A program made the translations under genes and the position numbers. From Paeniglutamicibacter gangotriensis Lz1y (GTDB lineage: Bacteria; Actinomycetota; Actinomycetes; Actinomycetales; Micrococcaceae): 64,000 nt of DNA. The notes under the pieces were generated by a model that saw only the letters and a list, made by a program, of their open reading frames with translations, had not been told where the DNA came from and ran no database searches. The stretch is taken from contig NZ_AOCK01000003.1 in assembly GCF_000348945.1 (NCBI RefSeq), positions 124,001 to 188,000 on the forward strand, read 5' to 3'. Below, piece by piece: positions 22,218 through 56,264 of this stretch (its first letter is position 1; each line of letters opens with the position of its first letter).

Positions 22218-22226
22218 TTGATTATG

Positions 22227-22299
22227 CTCCCCCGAATGGACTTGAACCAGTAACCTTCCGATTAACAGTCGGACGCTCTGCCAATTGAGCTACGGGGGA
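22227..22299 (-). tRNA. tRNA-Asn (GTT), copy 1
   Basis: Cloverleaf of 73 nt: acceptor TCCCCCG/CGGGGGA with discriminator G, D arm GCTCAATTGGCAGAGC, anticodon GTT in ACTGTTAAT. The T stem ACTGG/CCATT has one C-T mismatch (positions 50-64). Identical to the copy at 25738-25810. Confidence 0.95.
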
Positions 22300-25728: not shown

Positions 25729-25737
25729 CCGTTCTGG

Positions 25738-25810
25738 CTCCCCCGAATGGACTTGAACCAGTAACCTTCCGATTAACAGTCGGACGCTCTGCCAATTGAG
25801 CTACGGGGGA
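25738..25810 (-). tRNA. tRNA-Asn (GTT), copy 2
   Basis: Same 73-nt sequence as copy 1, including the T-stem mismatch. Anticodon GTT. Confidence 0.95.
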
Positions 25811-29117: not shown

Positions 29118-30314
29118 TTAGCCGCCGGAGATGTCGAGTTCGGCCGCGGCAATCATGGCTTTGTGGTTCTCGTTCATTTCGCGGGTCGAGAGCCAGCCGT
29201 CGGGCAAGTGGGTTTTCTTCGGGGAACCGGCGCGTCCGCGCTGACCCTCGGCGTCTTTGCCCGGGTAGGGCATGGAAAGATCCAGCTGGTCCAGCAACTC
29301 GCGCAGCACTTCAAGGGTCGGGACCTGGGCCAGTGCGGAGCGGATGTCGCTGCCCACTGGGTAGCCCTTGAAGTACCAGGCCATGTGCTTGCGGATGTCG
29401 CGCAGGCCCTTGAATTCATCTTCGAAGTACTCGGTCAGCAGCTCAGCGTGACGGTAGACCGTCTCGGCGACCTTGGCCAGGCCGGGACGGAAGCGAGTGT
29501 CGGTTCCTTCGAAGGCGGCCTGCAGGTCACCGAAGAGCCAGGGCCGGCCCATGCAGCCGCGGCCCACCACGATGCCGTCGACACCTGTCTGCTCGACCAT
29601 GGCCACCGCATCCTCGGCACTCCAGATGTCCCCGTTGCCCAGCACCGGCATGTCGGGAAGGGCTTCGCGCAGGCGCGCAATGGCGTCCCAGTCGGCCTTG
29701 CCGGAGTAGTACTGGCTGGCGGTGCGCCCGTGCAGGGCCACAGCCGCAACACCGTGGTCACGGGCGATCTTGCCCGATTCGATGTAGGTGAGGTGGTCCT
29801 CGTTGATGCCCTTGCGCATCTTGATGGTCAAGGGCACATCGCCGCGGGCTGCCTCGGTGGTGGCAGCCTTGATGATGGCAGTGAACAGGTCGGTCTTCCA
29901 GGGAAGCGCCGCTCCCCCGCCCTTGCGGGTGACCTTGGGAACCGGGCAGCCGAAGTTCAAGTCGATATGGTCGGCGCGGTCTTCTTCGACAATCAGGCGC
30001 ACTGCTGCGCCGACGGTCTTGGGGTCCACCCCGTAGAGCTGGATTGAGCGCAGGGATTCGTCGTCATCATGGGAGATGATGCGCATCGATTCGGTGTTTC
30101 GTTCCACCAAAGCCCGGGAGGTGACCATCTCCGTGACGTACACGCCGCCACCGTATTCGCGGCAGAGCCGTCGGAAGGCCTTGTTGGTGATGCCGGCCAT
30201 GGGGGCCAGGATCACCGGGGTCTCAATGGTGTGCTTTCCCAGTTTTAACGGGGGCAGCTCAAGCTTCGCCGGGGTAGGCGCGGCGTTTTCGGGTGCATCG
30301 GCAATAACAGTCAC
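29118..30314 (-). CDS. dusB: tRNA-dihydrouridine synthase
   Basis: FMN enzyme of 398 aa reducing uridine in tRNA D loops. TIM-barrel motifs are LAPMAGITNKAFRRL, NFGCPVPKVTRKGGGA (catalytic Cys123) and VVGRGCMGRPWLF. The C-terminal helical RNA-binding domain includes DIRKHMAWYFKGYPVG. Start GTG at 30314. First gene of the dusB-dgt-dnaG unit. Confidence 0.95.
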   Translation of the reverse strand: MTVIADAPENAAPTPAKLELPPLKLGKHTIETPVILAPMAGITNKAFRRLCREYGGGVYVTEMVTSRALVERNTESMRIISHDDDESLRSIQLYGVDPKTVGAAVRLIVEEDRADHIDLNFGCPVPKVTRKGGGAALPWKTDLFTAIIKAATTEAARGDVPLTIKMRKGINEDHLTYIESGKIARDHGVAAVALHGRTASQYYSGKADWDAIARLREALPDMPVLGNGDIWSAEDAVAMVEQTGVDGIVVGRGCMGRPWLFGDLQAAFEGTDTRFRPGLAKVAETVYRHAELLTEYFEDEFKGLRDIRKHMAWYFKGYPVGSDIRSALAQVPTLEVLRELLDQLDLSMPYPGKDAEGQRGRAGSPKKTHLPDGWLSTREMNENHKAMIAAAELDISGG

Positions 30315-30714
30315 CTACCTATTCTCTCAAATAGAAGCAAATCCGCGACGTTACTGGGCAGACTTGTGCATCACAGGGGAATATTCCGTGGGCTGTCACC
30401 ATTCGACCATGTCTGAAAACGTTTGCAGGCAAAGGAAAACACGTGAACCCAATTACTTGGTCGCGTGGCGACGGCTTGGATGAACCGACCCAAGATAGAC
30501 CACTTGATCCACCACGTAGAGGGATGACGTCCGACTGAACACAGCTACGATCGGTCCGACGACTCGACAGCGCGGAGGAGCCCCATGGGTCCAGGAGCAT
30601 CGGATGGGTGGCATCAAACGGCGATCGGGACAGTCGGTCGGTTTGGAACTGGAGCTCGTGATCCCACTGGCGAGCCCCGCGCCAGTGCCATGGCCTTCGG
30701 TTAGCATGGCACTA
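30315..30714. other. Region between dusB and the retron RNA
   Basis: Four hundred bases without a supported gene. It contains the dusB promoter side and, near the right end, two strong hairpins: CACTGGCG (30665-30672) with 30680-30687, and AGTGCCATG (30684-30692) with CATGGCACT (30705-30713), which are mutually exclusive. The latter ends one base before the retron a1 repeat and could insulate the RNA from upstream transcription. Confidence 0.5.
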
Positions 30715-30881
30715 TGCGATGGTTTCTTTGATGAGGTGGGATGCGTCTTTTAGTACGCGTTCCTCTCCGGGGATACCCCGGGGTATGCAGTATTGCCTGA
30801 TCCATGCACCGCAGGTGCGTCTCTGCGCTCCGCGCAGCACGGCACCCGCACAGATAGCTAGGTCATCGAGAAGCCATCGCA
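30715..30881 (+). ncRNA. Predicted retron msr-msd RNA
   Basis: The a1 arm (30715-30734, starting TGCGATGGTTTCT) pairs with the a2 arm (30863-30881, ending CCATCGCA): 19 pairs including G-U wobbles, with a single bulged T. Inside are an msr-like hairpin at 30738-30763 (9-bp stem, loop CTTTTAGT), a second at 30765-30783 (8 pairs, ATA loop), and a long msd-like hairpin at 30811-30849 (CTGCGC-TCC-GCGCAG core, outer GGTGC/GCACC). The a2 arm ends 4 nt before the RT start codon. This order, a1-msr-msd-a2-RT, is the retron plan. The branching G is not assigned; G30733, G30735 and G30736 are candidates. Boundaries by hand folding. Confidence 0.75.
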
Positions 30882-30885
30882 CCCC

Positions 30886-32271
30886 ATGACACCTGACTAT
30901 GCCCCGGTGACTCGTGCCTCGGCAACGTTGAAGCGCACGCCCCACCCCACCGCGTCCTCCGTAGCAGCGATACTGGCGCAGGGCTTCCTCGGTTCCCCGC
31001 AGTGGTCAAAGACCGAACTCGTCAATGCCGGTACCCATGTATTAGGCGCAAGACGACGTTGGCTGGGTCCCCTGGCAACCCAGATTCTGCAGGTGTATCC
31101 ACGGCCGCCGGTGGACGCTCCGCGCGAACTGGCCGCAGCGATCCTCCTGTGTGAGCCTTTCGCTGAGGCCGTAGCCAAGGCAATTCATCAACGAAAACCA
31201 ATTCGCGTGGCCAACTTTGTACTTCGGCCTGCGGCAGCCCGGGAAAACAGTCAGCCCAGAGTTCCCCGCCTTGACACCCTGGCCAGTCTCGCGGCAATGC
31301 TTGAGCTCACATCCGGGGAGTTGGAATGGTTTGCTGATCCGCAGCATTGGAACCGGAGGGCAGATGGGAAGCTTCAGCATTACCGCTACGAGTGGCGGCA
31401 GCGCCCGGGCAGGCTTCCGCGTTTGCTGGAGATTCCTGCCCCGCGATTGCGGACCATTCAGAGAACCGTTCTGCGGGAACTGCTGTACCCCATTGAGCTC
31501 CATGGTGCCGCACACGGATTTGTTCCAGGCCGAAGCGCCGGCACAGGCGCGGCACAGCACACCGGTCAGGACGTGGTGGTCAGTTTAGATTTGGTGACAT
31601 TTTTCGCCAAGGTCCCCGCCGGGCGGGTATTTGGCACGCTGCGGCAGGCTGGATTTACTGAAGCCGTAGCGCATCGACTCACCGGCATTTGCACGCACGC
31701 AGTTCCGCCTCGGGTACTGTCCCTGATGCCTCCCGGCGGCGACCTCAACGAGCGTTTTGCGTTACGACAGGCACTCTCACGGCCGCATCTTCCACAAGGT
31801 GCACCAACTTCACCCATGGTTGCCAATTTATCTTTACGGAGGCTGGATTCGCGCCTCTCGGGTCTCGCGGATAAGTTCGATGCTCGCTACACCCGCTATG
31901 CCGATGACCTTGCCTTTAGCGGCGGCATGGAACTAGGACGGCGTACCAAAGCTTTCATTCGGACTGCCACGAGCATCGTTGAAGCTGAGGGCCACGAAGC
32001 CAACCGGCTAAAGACACGTGTACGCCCAGCCAGTGTTCGGCAATTGGTAACATCCGTGGTGGTCAACAAGCACACCAATGTGACTCGTGCGGACTTTGAC
32101 CGGCTCAAGGCAGTCCTCCACAACTGCCTTTCGTACGGACCAGAATCGCAAAACCGGGGAGCACACGCTGATTTCCGCAGCTACCTCCTGGGACATATTT
32201 CTTGGGTAGCCACTCTCAATCCAGACAGAGGAGCCAAACTGCTGCAGGAGTTTTATCGAATCCAGTGGTGA
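30886..32271 (+). CDS. Retron-type reverse transcriptase (Mx162-like)
   Basis: RT of 461 aa. An N-terminal extension of about 140 residues precedes the polymerase: LEWFADPQHW, AHGFVPGRS (209-217), GAAQH (221-225) at the retron NAxxH position, catalytic Asp235 in VSLDLVTFF, LPQGAPTSP (302-310), YTRYADDLAFSG with Asp340/Asp341, LKTR (375-378), and VTS-VVVN (388-394) at the VTG position. The C-terminus FRSYLLGHISWV...RIQW matches long myxobacterial retron RTs as I recall them. It would copy part of the upstream RNA into msDNA. The ATG lies 4 nt after a2; ribosome site weak. No effector gene is adjacent. Confidence 0.9.
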   Translation: MTPDYAPVTRASATLKRTPHPTASSVAAILAQGFLGSPQWSKTELVNAGTHVLGARRRWLGPLATQILQVYPRPPVDAPRELAAAILLCEPFAEAVAKAIHQRKPIRVANFVLRPAAARENSQPRVPRLDTLASLAAMLELTSGELEWFADPQHWNRRADGKLQHYRYEWRQRPGRLPRLLEIPAPRLRTIQRTVLRELLYPIELHGAAHGFVPGRSAGTGAAQHTGQDVVVSLDLVTFFAKVPAGRVFGTLRQAGFTEAVAHRLTGICTHAVPPRVLSLMPPGGDLNERFALRQALSRPHLPQGAPTSPMVANLSLRRLDSRLSGLADKFDARYTRYADDLAFSGGMELGRRTKAFIRTATSIVEAEGHEANRLKTRVRPASVRQLVTSVVVNKHTNVTRADFDRLKAVLHNCLSYGPESQNRGAHADFRSYLLGHISWVATLNPDRGAKLLQEFYRIQW

Positions 32272-32762
32272 AGCGTCGAATTGATGCCCGGGCCCTGGCA
32301 TCCCCCGTCAAGACTGATACCCATCGAAGCCGACCGCGTCTTCCACATACTTCGTGGTTATTGGCAGGCGAAACTAATTGTCGCCACCGGTCAGCTCTAT
32401 GTTGAATCTGAACTTGTGGTTCTAAATTTTCTTCGTCGTCGTACTGAGGGCCCATAATTCCGAGCTGACATGGTGCTCTCCTACACTGAGTTCTGACTTT
32501 GACGATGTTGGCATTCTCCTATGCGTCAGGCTGGGGCGGCTCCACAGGGGTACAGGAAGTCCGTTTGATCCCGTGGGGCGAAAACCAGAAAACCAGTAAT
32601 AACGTCCCGTTCAATTTTGTCAGCGGCAGACCAGAGTTGTCGTATGAGTAGTCCCGGACCGCGTGCTGCTCTAGTTCAATTTCATGATGGAATGATTTTT
32701 CGCTCGCACAGCTTGTAACTGACAGCGGGAGGCCCCGCACGTAACCATCGAACGGAGCAAAC
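32272..32762. other. Intergenic region after the retron
   Basis: About 490 bases, lower in GC than the surroundings, with no supported gene. Short frames on both strands lack ribosome sites and family features. GGAG 5 nt before position 32763 serves the next gene. Confidence 0.5.
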
Positions 32763-33782
32763 GTGTCCAAGAAGATCGGGTTTCTAACCTTCGGTCATTC
32801 GGGTGGTTCGAGCAACTCTCCCGTGCCCACCGGTGCCGATGCCGTACGCCAGATGCTTGATTTGGCCGTCGCTGCCGAGGAATCCGGATTCGACGGCGCC
32901 TGGATGCGAGTGCATCACTTCGGCAACTCACTTTCCGCCCCCTTCCCGCTGCTCGCTGCAATGGCGGCGAAGACCACCACCCTCGAGGTAGGTACCGGGG
33001 TGATCGACATGCGCTATGAGAATCCGTTGTACATGGCCGAGATGGCCGGGGCCACCGATGCCATCAGCAACGGGCGCCTGCAGCTGGGCATCAGCCGTGG
33101 TTCACCCGAGCCTGCCCGCGACGGGCAACACCAATTCGGATACGACCTGGAACCGGGCAACGACTGGGCCAACGAGACCCGCGAACGCGCCGCCCGCTTC
33201 CGTCACGCCATCACCGGAGCGGGCCTTGCCCATCCGGTTCCCGGCGGTCCTCACCACGATGCGGACGAACGGCTGCCGATCAACCCGATTTCCCCGGGGT
33301 TGGAAAACAGGATCTGGTGGGGCGCGGGAACCATCGGCGCCGGGCTGTGGACCGCCGCGGTGGGCATGAACCTGCTCTCCTCCACCCTGCTGCTCGAAGA
33401 CGACGGCCGACCCTTCCACGTCTTGCAGGCCGACCAGCTGCGCCAGTACAAGGACGCCTATGCGGCCAGCGGACACAGCACCGGAGGGAAGACCGCGGTG
33501 ACGCGCAGCGCCTTCCCTATCACCACGGACAAGGACGAAATCTACTTCGGACGCCGCGAAAGTGGCGACTCAGTCGGAGTCCTTGACGGCTCCCGGGCAC
33601 GTTCGGGCCCCACCTACGCGGGCTCCCCCGAAGAGGTCGCGGCACAGTTCATGGCCGACGAGGCGATCTCCGAGGCCGACTATGTGCTGTTCGCACTCCC
33701 CAACCAACTGGGAGTGGACTACAACGCCCACGTCATGACCGAGATCGCGAACATCGCCAGGGAGATCGGTTGGAAGAAATAG
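32763..33782 (+). CDS. LLM-class flavin-dependent oxidoreductase
   Basis: Bacterial-luciferase-like monooxygenase fold, 339 aa, expected to use reduced flavin and oxygen on an unknown substrate. Typical segments: EESGFDGAWMRVHHFGN, VGTGVIDMRYENPLYMAE, ISNGRLQLGISRGSPE, IWWGAGTIGAGLWTA. Start GTG with GGAG 5 nt upstream. The last 82 bases recur, decayed, at 34151-34232. Confidence 0.92.
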   Translation: MSKKIGFLTFGHSGGSSNSPVPTGADAVRQMLDLAVAAEESGFDGAWMRVHHFGNSLSAPFPLLAAMAAKTTTLEVGTGVIDMRYENPLYMAEMAGATDAISNGRLQLGISRGSPEPARDGQHQFGYDLEPGNDWANETRERAARFRHAITGAGLAHPVPGGPHHDADERLPINPISPGLENRIWWGAGTIGAGLWTAAVGMNLLSSTLLLEDDGRPFHVLQADQLRQYKDAYAASGHSTGGKTAVTRSAFPITTDKDEIYFGRRESGDSVGVLDGSRARSGPTYAGSPEEVAAQFMADEAISEADYVLFALPNQLGVDYNAHVMTEIANIAREIGWKK

Positions 33783-34077: not shown

Positions 34078-34150
34078 AGCAACGACTGGGTCTGGTTTTC
34101 GAGAGGCAGACCCACCGAGAATGCCACGCAACGAGAACTTATCAAGCGTC

Positions 34151-34232
34151 CCAACAGACTGGGAGCGGACTACAACGCCCGCGTCATGACCGTGATCGCG
34201 AACTTCGCCTGGGGAATCGGCTGGAAGAAACA
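34151..34232 (+). pseudogene. Decayed copy of the 3' end of the LLM oxidoreductase gene
   Basis: Hand alignment to 33700-33781 gives 11 differences in 82 bases. The copied peptide reads NRLGADYNARVMTVIAN against NQLGVDYNAHVMTEIAN, and the stop TAG has become CAG. There is no start or upstream domain, so it is a relic of a duplication or recombination. Confidence 0.85.
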
Positions 34233-34294
34233 GCTGTCCCCCCAAACAAAGTCCAGTCGAAGCAGCGCCACGCGAAAATAACCTCTCGGCGCTA

Positions 34295-34302: not shown

Positions 34303-35684
34303 GGCTCTCCTGACGTAAATGTGGGTGGCGTCATTTGTGGTACGGGAGCCGGGTGGTGACAGGCCCGCAAGCGAGCATGATCAGTGCCAGCGTGGCCTCC
34401 GGTGAATGGAACCCGTAGGAACGTCGGGTCATGGTCCTGATTTTGTTGTTTAGGCCCTCATGTTTGCCGTTGCTTATTTTGCGGGTAACCGCTTGGTAGA
34501 TGCCCTCCATGTGTCCTCGCAGGGTAGCCCCGGTCTTCATGAAAGGGGCCATCCCACTGGCGGTTGCGGCGTCGCACCATTGACTGATCATGCCCATGAC
34601 GTCCTCTGTTTCGAGGTCCCCGGCGAAGACCTCCCGCAAGGATTCCTTGAGCAGGTAGGCCTCCCACAGTTCCCCTCCGTCCTCCTCCATTTGCTTCAGG
34701 GTCGCGTCCTGCATATCGGTGAGCTTCCCGGGGTTTTTCAGCAGGGCCCAGCGGTTGCCCTTGTACTTTTTGGCGAAGGCCTGGTCCGGTAGTTCACGGG
34801 CCTTTTGCCAGAAGGCGCGACGGACGGCATCCAGGGCATTGGTGGCCAGCTGGACGCAGTGGAACGGGTCAATGCAGATGGCGGCATCGGGTGCATTCTT
34901 CGTTACTGATTTGATGAATGCCGCTCCCATGTCCATGCTGACTGCCTCGATGCTTTGAGTGTTTTCGGGGCCGATTTCCGTGAAAAATTTATCCAGGGTG
35001 GCGGCGTTCTTTCCGGCTGCTCCCCAGAGGATGGTGGAGGTTTCGTGGTCCGAAATCAGGGTGAGGTAGTTGTGGTGTTTCTTCCAGGAGATCTCGTCCA
35101 CTCCCAGGCTCACCAGATTCTCAAAGCGTGTGTCATCGAGTTGTTCCTCCACGACGCGTTCACAGATGGCTCCGACGGTGCGCCAGGCGATCCTGGTGAA
35201 GGCCGAAACGCTGCTCTTGTCCGCCCGGGTGACCAGCCAGGCGACGAGGTCCTCGAAGTCTCGGGTGAATCTCGCGTTGGGGCGGGCGAAAGGAACGGCC
35301 TGGACCACGACTCCGTGCTCGGGGCAGCGCAGCCGCCGGCGAAGCATTTTCAGGACCAGTGGGGTGCCGCCCAGATCCAGGTGCCGCCACGTGGATTCGG
35401 CCCACCGGGTGTCGTATGCGGCCTTGGTGATGAAGGGGCAGTGCGGGCAGGAAAGCTTCTTCCGGGCGGTGAGTTTCACCGTGGCGATGACCGGGCCTTG
35501 ACCATCGAATTCGACGGTGGTGATGTTGGTGCCGCTGAATTTGAGGACGCGATTGAGTAGAGTGGTAGCTCGCATGGGTAACTCCGGTGAAGTTTGATGG
35601 TTGAGGAACTTACAAACTTACCGGGTTGCCCATGCTTTCTCGTTTACCACGTTTTCTCTGACCCACATTTACGTCCGGAGAGCC
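34303..35684. mobile_element. Complete ISL3-family insertion sequence
   Basis: Element of 1382 bp. Terminal inverted repeats of 24 bp (34303-34326 and 35661-35684, outer end GGCTCTCC, inner end ACGTAAATGTGGGT) differ at one position. The flanking 8-bp duplication GAAAAAGC is perfect, the length expected for ISL3. It contains one uninterrupted transposase gene, so the insertion looks recent and potentially active. Confidence 0.95.
34331..35575 (-). CDS. ISL3-family transposase
   Basis: DDE transposase of 414 aa. An N-terminal zinc-finger-like region with two Cys pairs (CPHCP near 43-47, RCPEH near 82-86) and an HTH (about 120-145) lead to the DDE core: SLGVDEISWKK, VSMDMGAAF and KHEGLNNKIRTMTRRSYGF, which supply the two Asp and the Glu. 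Full family length and no internal stops. Confidence 0.95.
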   Translation of the reverse strand: MRATTLLNRVLKFSGTNITTVEFDGQGPVIATVKLTARKKLSCPHCPFITKAAYDTRWAESTWRHLDLGGTPLVLKMLRRRLRCPEHGVVVQAVPFARPNARFTRDFEDLVAWLVTRADKSSVSAFTRIAWRTVGAICERVVEEQLDDTRFENLVSLGVDEISWKKHHNYLTLISDHETSTILWGAAGKNAATLDKFFTEIGPENTQSIEAVSMDMGAAFIKSVTKNAPDAAICIDPFHCVQLATNALDAVRRAFWQKARELPDQAFAKKYKGNRWALLKNPGKLTDMQDATLKQMEEDGGELWEAYLLKESLREVFAGDLETEDVMGMISQWCDAATASGMAPFMKTGATLRGHMEGIYQAVTRKISNGKHEGLNNKIRTMTRRSYGFHSPEATLALIMLACGPVTTRLPYHK

Positions 35685-41487: not shown

Positions 41488-41827
41488 CCGATTTTCCGCG
41501 GGTTCCCGGCGGGCGCCGTGCGGCGCGACGACTGTTGGCCGCCCGGCCGTTCCCGCCGCCGGGGTCCGCTTCATCGGGCCCCTGCGGCGGGAAAGTTTTT
41601 GCCTTCGGTTGCCTGGTTCCGGCAACCGGTTGGCCACCGGCTCGGTGGCCCGATTCCCGCTCCGCCCGCCGATTGGCATATCCTCGGTGGTGGACGCCGC
41701 CCGCATTGTGCACCGCGGCGCTGCAGCAGTCGTTTGCCCGCTAGGCGCGACTGAAAGGAATACGGACGGGACGGCCCGTTCGAAACACTGAACACGAGGA
41801 CGACCTCGTGGAATAGGGTTCATCCCC
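41488..41827. other. Region between siderophore operon and antiporter gene
   Basis: About 340 bases, no supported gene. It contains hairpins GGTTGCC/GGCAACC near 41610-41630 and CACGAGG-ACGA-CCTCGTG near 41794-41811, just before the antiporter gene. One may end the iron operon; the last lies in the antiporter leader. Confidence 0.5.
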
Positions 41828-56071: not shown

Positions 56072-56177
56072 TATTTCCCCTTCACTAAGGATTCAGGGGT
56101 ATGCCCAAGGCCGGCTCCGCTGGGGAGTCGTTATGTGCTGGGGCATTCCCGCGCTTGTCCCACGTCTTTCTGACGCA

Positions 56178-56264
56178 GGGCCTGGTCTTCACCCGGGGCA
56201 CCCCACCGCGGCGGAGGGTTGCCGTTCAGCAAGCCGGGGCCTTTAGCTGAAACTCATGACCTTG
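56178..56264 (-). ncRNA. SAM-IV type riboswitch
   Basis: On the minus strand the leader of metY reads GGTCATGAG, CAGC..., GCCCCGGCTTGCTG, CGGCAACCCTCC, CGCGGTGGGGTGCCCCGGGT and ends GAAGACC. This order of blocks is the actinobacterial SAM-IV consensus (SAM-I superfamily) as I know it. P1 is GGTC (56258-56261) with GACC (56184-56187). It should shut off metY-metX when SAM is abundant. A possible switch hairpin, GGGTATGCCC against GGGCATTCCC, lies between it and the ATG. Confidence 0.88.

What the first reader, a model, noticed from the sequence alone, without database searches (positions are those of the whole stretch)
30715..32271. Retron-like element: predicted msr-msd RNA plus Mx162-type reverse transcriptase in a Micrococcaceae genome
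A reverse transcriptase with YADD, LPQGAPTSP and an AHGF...H block is preceded, 4 nt from its start codon, by a 167-nt region bounded by a long inverted repeat (19 pairs, one bulge). Inside are two short msr-like hairpins and one long msd-like hairpin. That is the full a1-msr-msd-a2-RT plan of retrons. The protein length (461 aa) and C-terminus recall myxobacterial Mx162/Sa163-type RTs rather than the better studied enterobacterial ones. Retrons of this branch in Micrococcaceae are, to my knowledge, little described.
Basis: partly seen in the sequence, partly recalled or inferred. Interest (0 to 1): 0.92.

Follow-up and report, generated by a model that had tools for sequence, protein, structure and literature searches.

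The report
Stand-alone retron in an actinobacterium
This is very probably a retron, a small element whose reverse transcriptase copies part of its own RNA into single-stranded DNA; the same RNA design recurs in several bacterial phyla, but unlike the well-studied retrons it has no recognisable partner toxin gene, so how it acts is an open question.

Summary
A 461-aa reverse transcriptase (30886-32271) follows a 167-nt folded RNA (30715-30881). In 30 related loci, aligned without structure, 26 of 43 predicted pairs show compensatory changes, strongest in the a1/a2 stem. A covariance model finds the same RNA 5' of the RT in 28 of 32 held-out relatives, reaching Acidobacteriota, Planctomycetota and Verrucomicrobiota, and in two Burkholderia replicons. 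Of 245 Micrococcaceae genomes, 21 have the RNA, all among the 22 with a near full-length RT. A -10-like hexamer lies just before a1. The RT scores best with PADLOC RT_other and RT_outgroup; the first 18 PDB fold matches are retron RTs. The cassette looks solitary: no neighbour gene family recurs in more than 6 of 42 loci, some sister genomes have empty sites, and in P. antarcticus homology spans only promoter to RT stop. A confident five-helix N-terminal domain has no PDB fold match. The msd tip is a U-N-C triloop (G-N-A in cDNA) in 43 of 44 actinobacterial sequences. Likely product: a short branched msDNA. Defence role and built-in effector are inference.

The parts
30702..30707 (+). -10-like hexamer TAGCAT, 7 nt before the first a1 base; predicted promoter of RNA and RT
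   Evidence: TANNNT 4-13 nt before a1 in 44 of 59 loci (28 of them at exactly 7 nt), 4.7 expected from shuffling; one of 60 loci skipped because its contig starts inside the RNA. The generic sigma-70 scan found no promoter.
30715..30734 (+). a1 arm
   Evidence: pairs with a2; 15 of the 18 a1/a2 pairs counted in A1 have changes on both sides (helices 1 and 2)
30735..30736 (+). predicted priming (branch) guanosine, motif GAGG; 30735 favoured, directly 3' of a1
   Evidence: inferred from position; GAGG/GAGA/GAGC in actinobacterial loci, CAAGC in most loci of other phyla; known motifs TAGC, CAGC, GAGC, CAGA, ACGC (PMC6868368, passages)
30738..30763 (+). msr hairpin 1 (variable sequence, covarying stem)
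30765..30783 (+). msr hairpin 2, CUCCGGGG-NNA-CCCCGGGG; nearly invariant in close relatives, covaries in distant ones
   Evidence: 100% of cells paired in A1; in A4 99.8%, one pair with 21 both-side changes in 60
30784..30862 (+). predicted msd template region (upper bound of the reverse-transcribed part; 3' end of the cDNA not determined)
   Evidence: inference from retron anatomy; DNA fold of 30790-30862 complement z = -2.26, 4 of 200 shuffles as good
30811..30849 (+). msd hairpin
   Evidence: 97.6% and 98.9% of cells paired in its two helices, 9 of 13 pairs with both-side changes
30829..30831 (+). U-N-C triloop of the msd hairpin (UCC here), G-N-A in the cDNA
   Evidence: 43 of 44 actinobacterial rows, the misbinned-looking L012, and 2 of 15 rows from other phyla
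30863..30881 (+). a2 arm
30886..32271 (+). retron reverse transcriptase, 461 aa
   Evidence: PADLOC RT_other 1.8e-175, RT_outgroup 9.4e-166; Pfam RVT_1 6.6e-12; fold
30940..31215 (+). N-terminal five-helix domain of the RT protein (aa 19-110), no Pfam or PDB fold match
   Evidence: AF2 pLDDT 94.0; Foldseek best E = 3.0; Pfam none
30696..32269 (+). unit shared with the P. antarcticus copy, which lies at another place: promoter, RNA and RT only
   Evidence: blastn, G001 contig 49

Best explanation
A solitary retron. SHOWN by sequence: a conserved RNA (a1, two short hairpins, msd hairpin, a2) directly 5' of a retron-type RT, under selection for its pairing, with a conserved -10-like element before it. 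INFERRED: RNA polymerase starts at the first a1 base and makes one transcript of RNA and RT. The RNA folds, a1 pairs with a2, and the RT, held by the two msr hairpins, uses the 2'-OH of the G after a1 (30735) to copy from G30862 leftwards through the msd hairpin. Host RNase H removes the template, leaving a branched RNA-DNA whose DNA part (at most about 79 nt) folds into a hairpin capped by G-N-A. LEAST CERTAIN: the complex serves in phage defence like other retrons; no effector gene is linked, so the output would come from the N-terminal domain of the RT protein or from an unlinked host partner.
For: Covariation (with distant relatives 78). Model R1 finds the RNA on the RT strand upstream of the RT in 28 of 32 clade loci not used to build it, and in 0 of 8 loci with other RTs at E < 1e-4; also in 4 of 6 plasmid-collection loci, not in a type I-like retron (L126) or a Methylobacterium RT (L127). 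RNA and RT co-occur: 21 of 245 Micrococcaceae genomes have the RNA, all among the 22 with RT at E <= 1e-120. -10 element. RT: PADLOC (38 of 38 members match RT_other and RT_outgroup), first 18 PDB fold hits are retron RTs, purifying selection (dN 0.079, dS 0.468 against L003). Solitary.
Against: No RNA, msDNA or phage data exist here. Branch G and msd end are inferred. RT region X lacks the N of NAXXH (GAAQH at aa 221-225) and region Y has VTS for VTG (17 of 38 members have VTG). Four clade loci gave no RNA: L011 and L013 begin at the RT, L037 and L079 (RT lacking its N-terminus) are unexplained. The clade as one side of a branch has only SH-aLRT 53. The role in defence has no direct evidence; the site is not a recognised defence island.
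Confidence: 0.93

Rival explanations
1. Retron whose output is the N-terminal five-helix domain of the RT protein: the msDNA keeps it inactive until phage disturbs the complex.
For: No neighbour gene family recurs; domain present in the Micrococcales members and recognisable in other phyla; confident fold; under constraint (dN 0.139, dS 0.382 against L003). Single-gene retrons with fused effectors exist (PADLOC RT-Toprim, RT-TIR, RT-Protease models).
Against: No catalytic-looking motif and no match to any Pfam family or PDB fold; near-invariant residues G54, R58, W59 look structural or nucleic-acid binding. Domain is divergent in Williamsia and Dietzia members.
Confidence: 0.3
2. Retron guarding an unlinked host protein (for example SSB or a recombination nuclease), or with a role other than defence.
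For: Solitary in unrelated gene neighbourhoods. A review notes that some retrons lack clear association with effector genes (PMC8867640, passages).
Against: No partner identified; patchy presence (4 of 15 genomes of the genus) suits defence better than housekeeping.
Confidence: 0.4
3. Group II intron, DGR or other non-retron RT beside an unrelated structured RNA.
For: RT shares general RT motifs; weak NCBIfam match to group II RTs (44.5 bits, cut-off 300).
Against: PADLOC retron models 550-583 bits; group II RTs outside at SH-aLRT 100; 18 retron RTs rank before the first group II RT in the fold search; the RNA tracks the RT.
Confidence: 0.02
4. Decayed, non-functional retron.
For: Absent from most of the genus; VTS instead of VTG.
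Against: Open frame, low dN/dS, conserved promoter and pairing. Real decay is visible elsewhere: L030 frame breaks after 135 aa, G106 keeps only a C-terminal 79-aa stretch.
Confidence: 0.05

Closest known systems
PADLOC retron RT lineages 'RT_other' (PDLC02949) and 'RT_outgroup' (PDLC03740)
   Same: RT matches both over nearly its whole length, 582.7 and 550 bits; all 38 aligned members match both
   Different: These models cover the RT only; no RNA model or effector came with them in the tools used
Myxobacterial retrons Mx162 / Sa163 / Mx65 / Ne144
   Same: a1-msr-msd-a2-RT plan; N-terminal extension of the RT; AGC-type priming motif in relatives from other phyla (PMC6868368 passages)
   Different: Mx162 msd is 162 nt, here at most about 79 nt; sequence relationship not tested because no Mx162 sequence was available
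Retron Ec86 (Eco1)
   Same: best PDB match by sequence and by fold
   Different: Ec86 has a partner effector (entry title of 7v9x) and no such N-terminal domain; RT only 22% identical in the fold alignment
PADLOC type XIII retron RT
   Same: next-best PADLOC type, 279.4 bits over aa 120-459
   Different: half the score; N-terminal region not matched

Membership tests
retron | retron-type RT, distinct from group II intron RTs | tested here: met
retron | a1/a2 inverted repeat enclosing msr and msd, with covariation | tested here: met
retron | RNA located next to the RT and co-inherited with it | tested here: met
   exceptions L037, L079/G041 named
retron | conserved G at the 3' end of a1 as primer | tested here: inconclusive
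   conserved G at the right place; priming itself cannot be seen in sequence; motif GAGG is not among those listed in PMC6868368 (passage)
retron | region X NAXXH and region Y VTG in the RT | tested here: inconclusive
   AXXH kept with invariant H225 but N replaced by G; VTS in the window, VTG in 17 of 38; published exceptions exist (PMC6868368, passage)
retron | branched 2'-5' linked msDNA | not testable with these tools
   needs the strain or a laboratory host
tripartite defence retron (RT, RNA, effector) | linked or fused effector | tested here: not met
   no non-RT ORF family of 70 aa or more recurs in more than 6 of 42 loci, and those shared ones are local synteny; no known effector domain in the RT protein. 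An unknown effector in the N-terminal domain, ORFs under 70 aa and unlinked partners are not excluded
Mx162-type retron | RT groups with Mx162/Sa163 | not testable with these tools
   no Myxococcus sequence could be fetched
Mx162-type retron | long msd of about 160 nt | tested here: not met
   at most about 79 nt between hairpin 2 and a2
group II intron / DGR | RT groups with those RTs | tested here: not met
   group II; DGR: only by fold rank, no DGR in the tree

The most novel reading that the evidence does not exclude
A distinct retron type that needs no separate effector gene: RNA plus a reverse transcriptase whose own N-terminal five-helix domain, of a fold not matched in the PDB, is the sensor or toxic output. 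It recurs in five phyla, moves as a cassette of about 1.6 kb, and in Actinomycetota its msDNA ends in a G-N-A DNA hairpin kept by selection as the part that is sensed.
Probability: 0.3. Interest if true: 0.7.

Novelty: new member of a known kind. Interest (0 to 1): 0.45.

Why it matters
Well-studied retrons work as RT, RNA and effector. This lineage keeps RNA and RT under strong selection with no visible effector, so it offers a small, testable system for what an RT-msDNA complex can do alone. The RNA matches no Rfam family; model R1 would let others find it. A short, self-contained cassette native to high-GC actinobacteria could also be useful as a source of intracellular single-stranded DNA in those hosts.

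Tried and rejected
Rejected: group II intron or DGR origin. A conserved accessory gene: none found; Burkholderia pyrrocinia, Tsukamurella and Dietzia plasmid annotation also shows unrelated neighbours; two other plasmid records had no annotation there. Target-site duplication at the insertion: none evident by eye. Extra copies of the RNA in the genome: none. Free-standing copies of the N-terminal domain: in 99 genomes the strong matches lie in long open frames like the RT; two weak ones (E 2.2e-4, 4.1e-4) in G010 and G014 were not followed. Phage or plasmid carriage of close relatives: 0 of 8 phage and 2 of 69 plasmid records cover 80% of the RT. Rfam on the RNA region: two sub-threshold chance matches, no retron family. 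Sigma-70 and terminator scans: nothing. Spread in the phylum: 1 of 396 genomes (the own one), with stricter filters that lose weak matches. RT tree: clade supported at only 53.

Weak points: rows in A1 and A4 are related, several near-identical, so cell counts are not independent events. A4 was fitted to the model. Start codons were chosen by rule. Taxon names come from record titles; some look wrong. GNA hairpin stability, the dnaE2 name and the reading of neighbouring transport genes are recalled or by eye.

Full report
What is there. The window is part of a 4.32-Mb genome whose RT is 85% identical to that of Paeniglutamicibacter terrestris and 72% to P. antarcticus. Between dusB (Pfam Dus, minus strand) and a luciferase-like monooxygenase gene (plus strand) lies a 461-aa RT, 30886-32271. 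Just before it is a 167-nt RNA-like segment, 30715-30881, whose ends pair.

The RNA is real. Thirty loci were aligned by MAFFT without structure (A1). RNAalifold predicts 43 pairs, 26 of them with at least one sequence changed on both sides. With the same structure, 95.5% of cells pair against 81.8% in shuffles, 173 cells have both-side changes against 45.2, and 0 of 500 shuffles reach the observed values. Fifteen of the 18 counted a1/a2 pairs have compensatory changes. Model R1, built from A1, was run on 44 sources. Of 32 clade loci not used for the model, 28 match at E below 1e-4; misses are L011 and L013 (locus begins at the RT), L037 and L079. None of 8 loci with other RTs matches at that level. 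The held-out set includes several near-identical Williamsia loci. Four of six plasmid-collection loci also match: Tsukamurella, Dietzia and two Burkholderia. On the 60-row alignment A4, which is fitted to the model, 36 of 43 pairs have both-side changes.

Promoter and start. A TANNNT hexamer lies 4-13 nt before a1 in 44 of 59 loci, 28 at exactly 7 nt, against 4.7 expected from shuffled upstream sequence. In the window it is TAGCAT at 30702-30707. The RT start codon, chosen by rule, is within 20 nt of the end of a2 in 27 of 48 loci. These facts suggest one transcript that starts at a1; this is inference.

RNA and RT travel together. In 245 Micrococcaceae genomes the RT_outgroup profile finds 22 genomes at E of 1e-120 or better, and R1 finds 21, all among those 22; the exception is G041, whose RT match lacks the N-terminus. 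G106 keeps only a 79-position C-terminal stretch and no RNA. In the genus, 4 of 15 genomes have the RT.

The RT. Best PADLOC matches are RT_other (582.7 bits) and RT_outgroup (550), then RT_XIII (279.4); all 38 aligned members match the first two. No NCBIfam model reaches its cut-off. The best solved relatives are Ec86 RT by sequence and, by fold of a confident AF2 model (pLDDT 90.9), 18 retron RT chains before the first group II RT. In a quick tree of 53 rows the group II RTs stand apart at 100, while the 42 clade rows as one side of a branch have only 53. Region X reads GAAQH, with the histidine invariant; region Y reads VTS. dN/dS against P. terrestris is about 0.17 (0.079/0.468), 0.36 in the N-terminal domain and 0.11 in the RT part.

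The cassette looks solitary. Among ORFs of 70 aa or more in 42 loci, no family other than frames overlapping the RT occurs in more than 6 loci, and those are stretches of local synteny. In G012 and G013 the sequences matching 30447 and 32769 of the window abut; in G004 and G007 only about 60 nt lie between. G010 and G014 carry the retron at the same place as the window. In G001 (P. antarcticus RT) the retron is on another contig and homology spans only 30696-32269, that is -10 element to RT stop. The same dusB-monooxygenase gap holds a YefM/YoeB-type pair in G005 and a YceI gene in G003, so it is a variable spot. G009 has another arrangement, and G002, G006 and G011 gave no full match to the monooxygenase gene, so they were not judged.

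N-terminal domain. Residues 19-110 form five helices, pLDDT 94. The best Foldseek match has E = 3.0, Pfam gives none. G54, R58 and W59 are near-invariant in 29 rows. It could bind nucleic acid, hold a partner, or be the output; nothing here decides.

The msd tip. In 43 of 44 actinobacterial rows the RNA loop is U-N-C (N = C 31, U 8, G 4), in 2 of 15 rows from other phyla, and in L012, titled Acidobacteria but nested in Arthrobacter. The cDNA loop is therefore G-N-A closed, in most rows, by C-G. Such d(GNA) loops are, from memory, unusually stable in DNA. Keeping the outer two bases while the middle one varies is what selection on the DNA form would give, though recognition of the RNA loop by the RT would look the same. 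A search for papers joining this motif and retrons found none that names it.

Comparison with what is known. The review PMC6868368 (passages) gives the retron plan, priming motifs, the N-terminal extension of myxococcal RTs and earlier putative retrons in Actinobacteria. PMC8867640 (passages) states that some retrons lack a linked effector. PMC8934634, PMC12548924 and PMC12262390 were seen as passages and gave nothing on this lineage. The classification paper of Mestre et al. 2020 is not held, so whether it already describes an RNA for this lineage is unknown to me. For this reason I file the element as a new member of a known kind, and keep the effector-free type as the bold reading.

Verdict. 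Retron: 0.93. Solitary, without a linked effector gene: likely. Function: open; unlinked partner 0.4, built-in effector 0.3, remainder other or none. Mx162 kinship: cannot be told.

Noticed in passing
window 30314-32763 and L105-L116: The gap between dusB and the luciferase-like gene is a variable spot in the genus: retron (G000, G010, G014), YefM/YoeB-type toxin-antitoxin pair (G005), YceI gene (G003; G008 looks alike by eye), almost nothing (G004, G007, G012, G013).
   Followed up: partly
L034, L035, L039, L041, L042, L044-L047, L049: In 10 of 54 loci examined (nine Williamsia-type and Amycolatopsis arida) a DnaE-type polymerase gene (dnaE2 by recall) lies directly upstream of the retron on the same strand, as near as 9 nt from the RNA model's match in L047.
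   Followed up: partly
L049 5143-7632: Amycolatopsis arida RT frame is 830 aa, with a proline-rich insert of about 200 aa between the two halves of the RT match and a long N-terminal extension.
   Followed up: no
L012; L041: L012 (titled Acidobacteria MAG) nests in Arthrobacter and L041 (titled Kitasatospora arboriphila) is 96% identical to a Williamsia muralis RT; both titles look wrong.
   Followed up: partly
window 34331-35575 (-) and 34150-34233: ISL3-family transposase downstream, and an 84-bp repeat (87%) of the end of the luciferase-like gene next to it.
   Followed up: no
window 41763-41807 (+): Guanidine-II riboswitch match, 33.9 bits against a cut-off of 32.
   Followed up: no
window 56146-56261 (-): SAM-IV riboswitch, 108.8 bits.
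   Followed up: no
window 22226-22299 and 25735-25810 (-): Two tRNA-Asn(GTT) genes about 3.4 kb apart.
   Followed up: no
G000 contig 5, 195627-196214; G006, G013, G126, G169, G201, G214: Own genome also has a group II intron-like RT; other Micrococcaceae hold a different, shorter retron-like RT group of about 370-390 aa without this RNA.
   Followed up: partly
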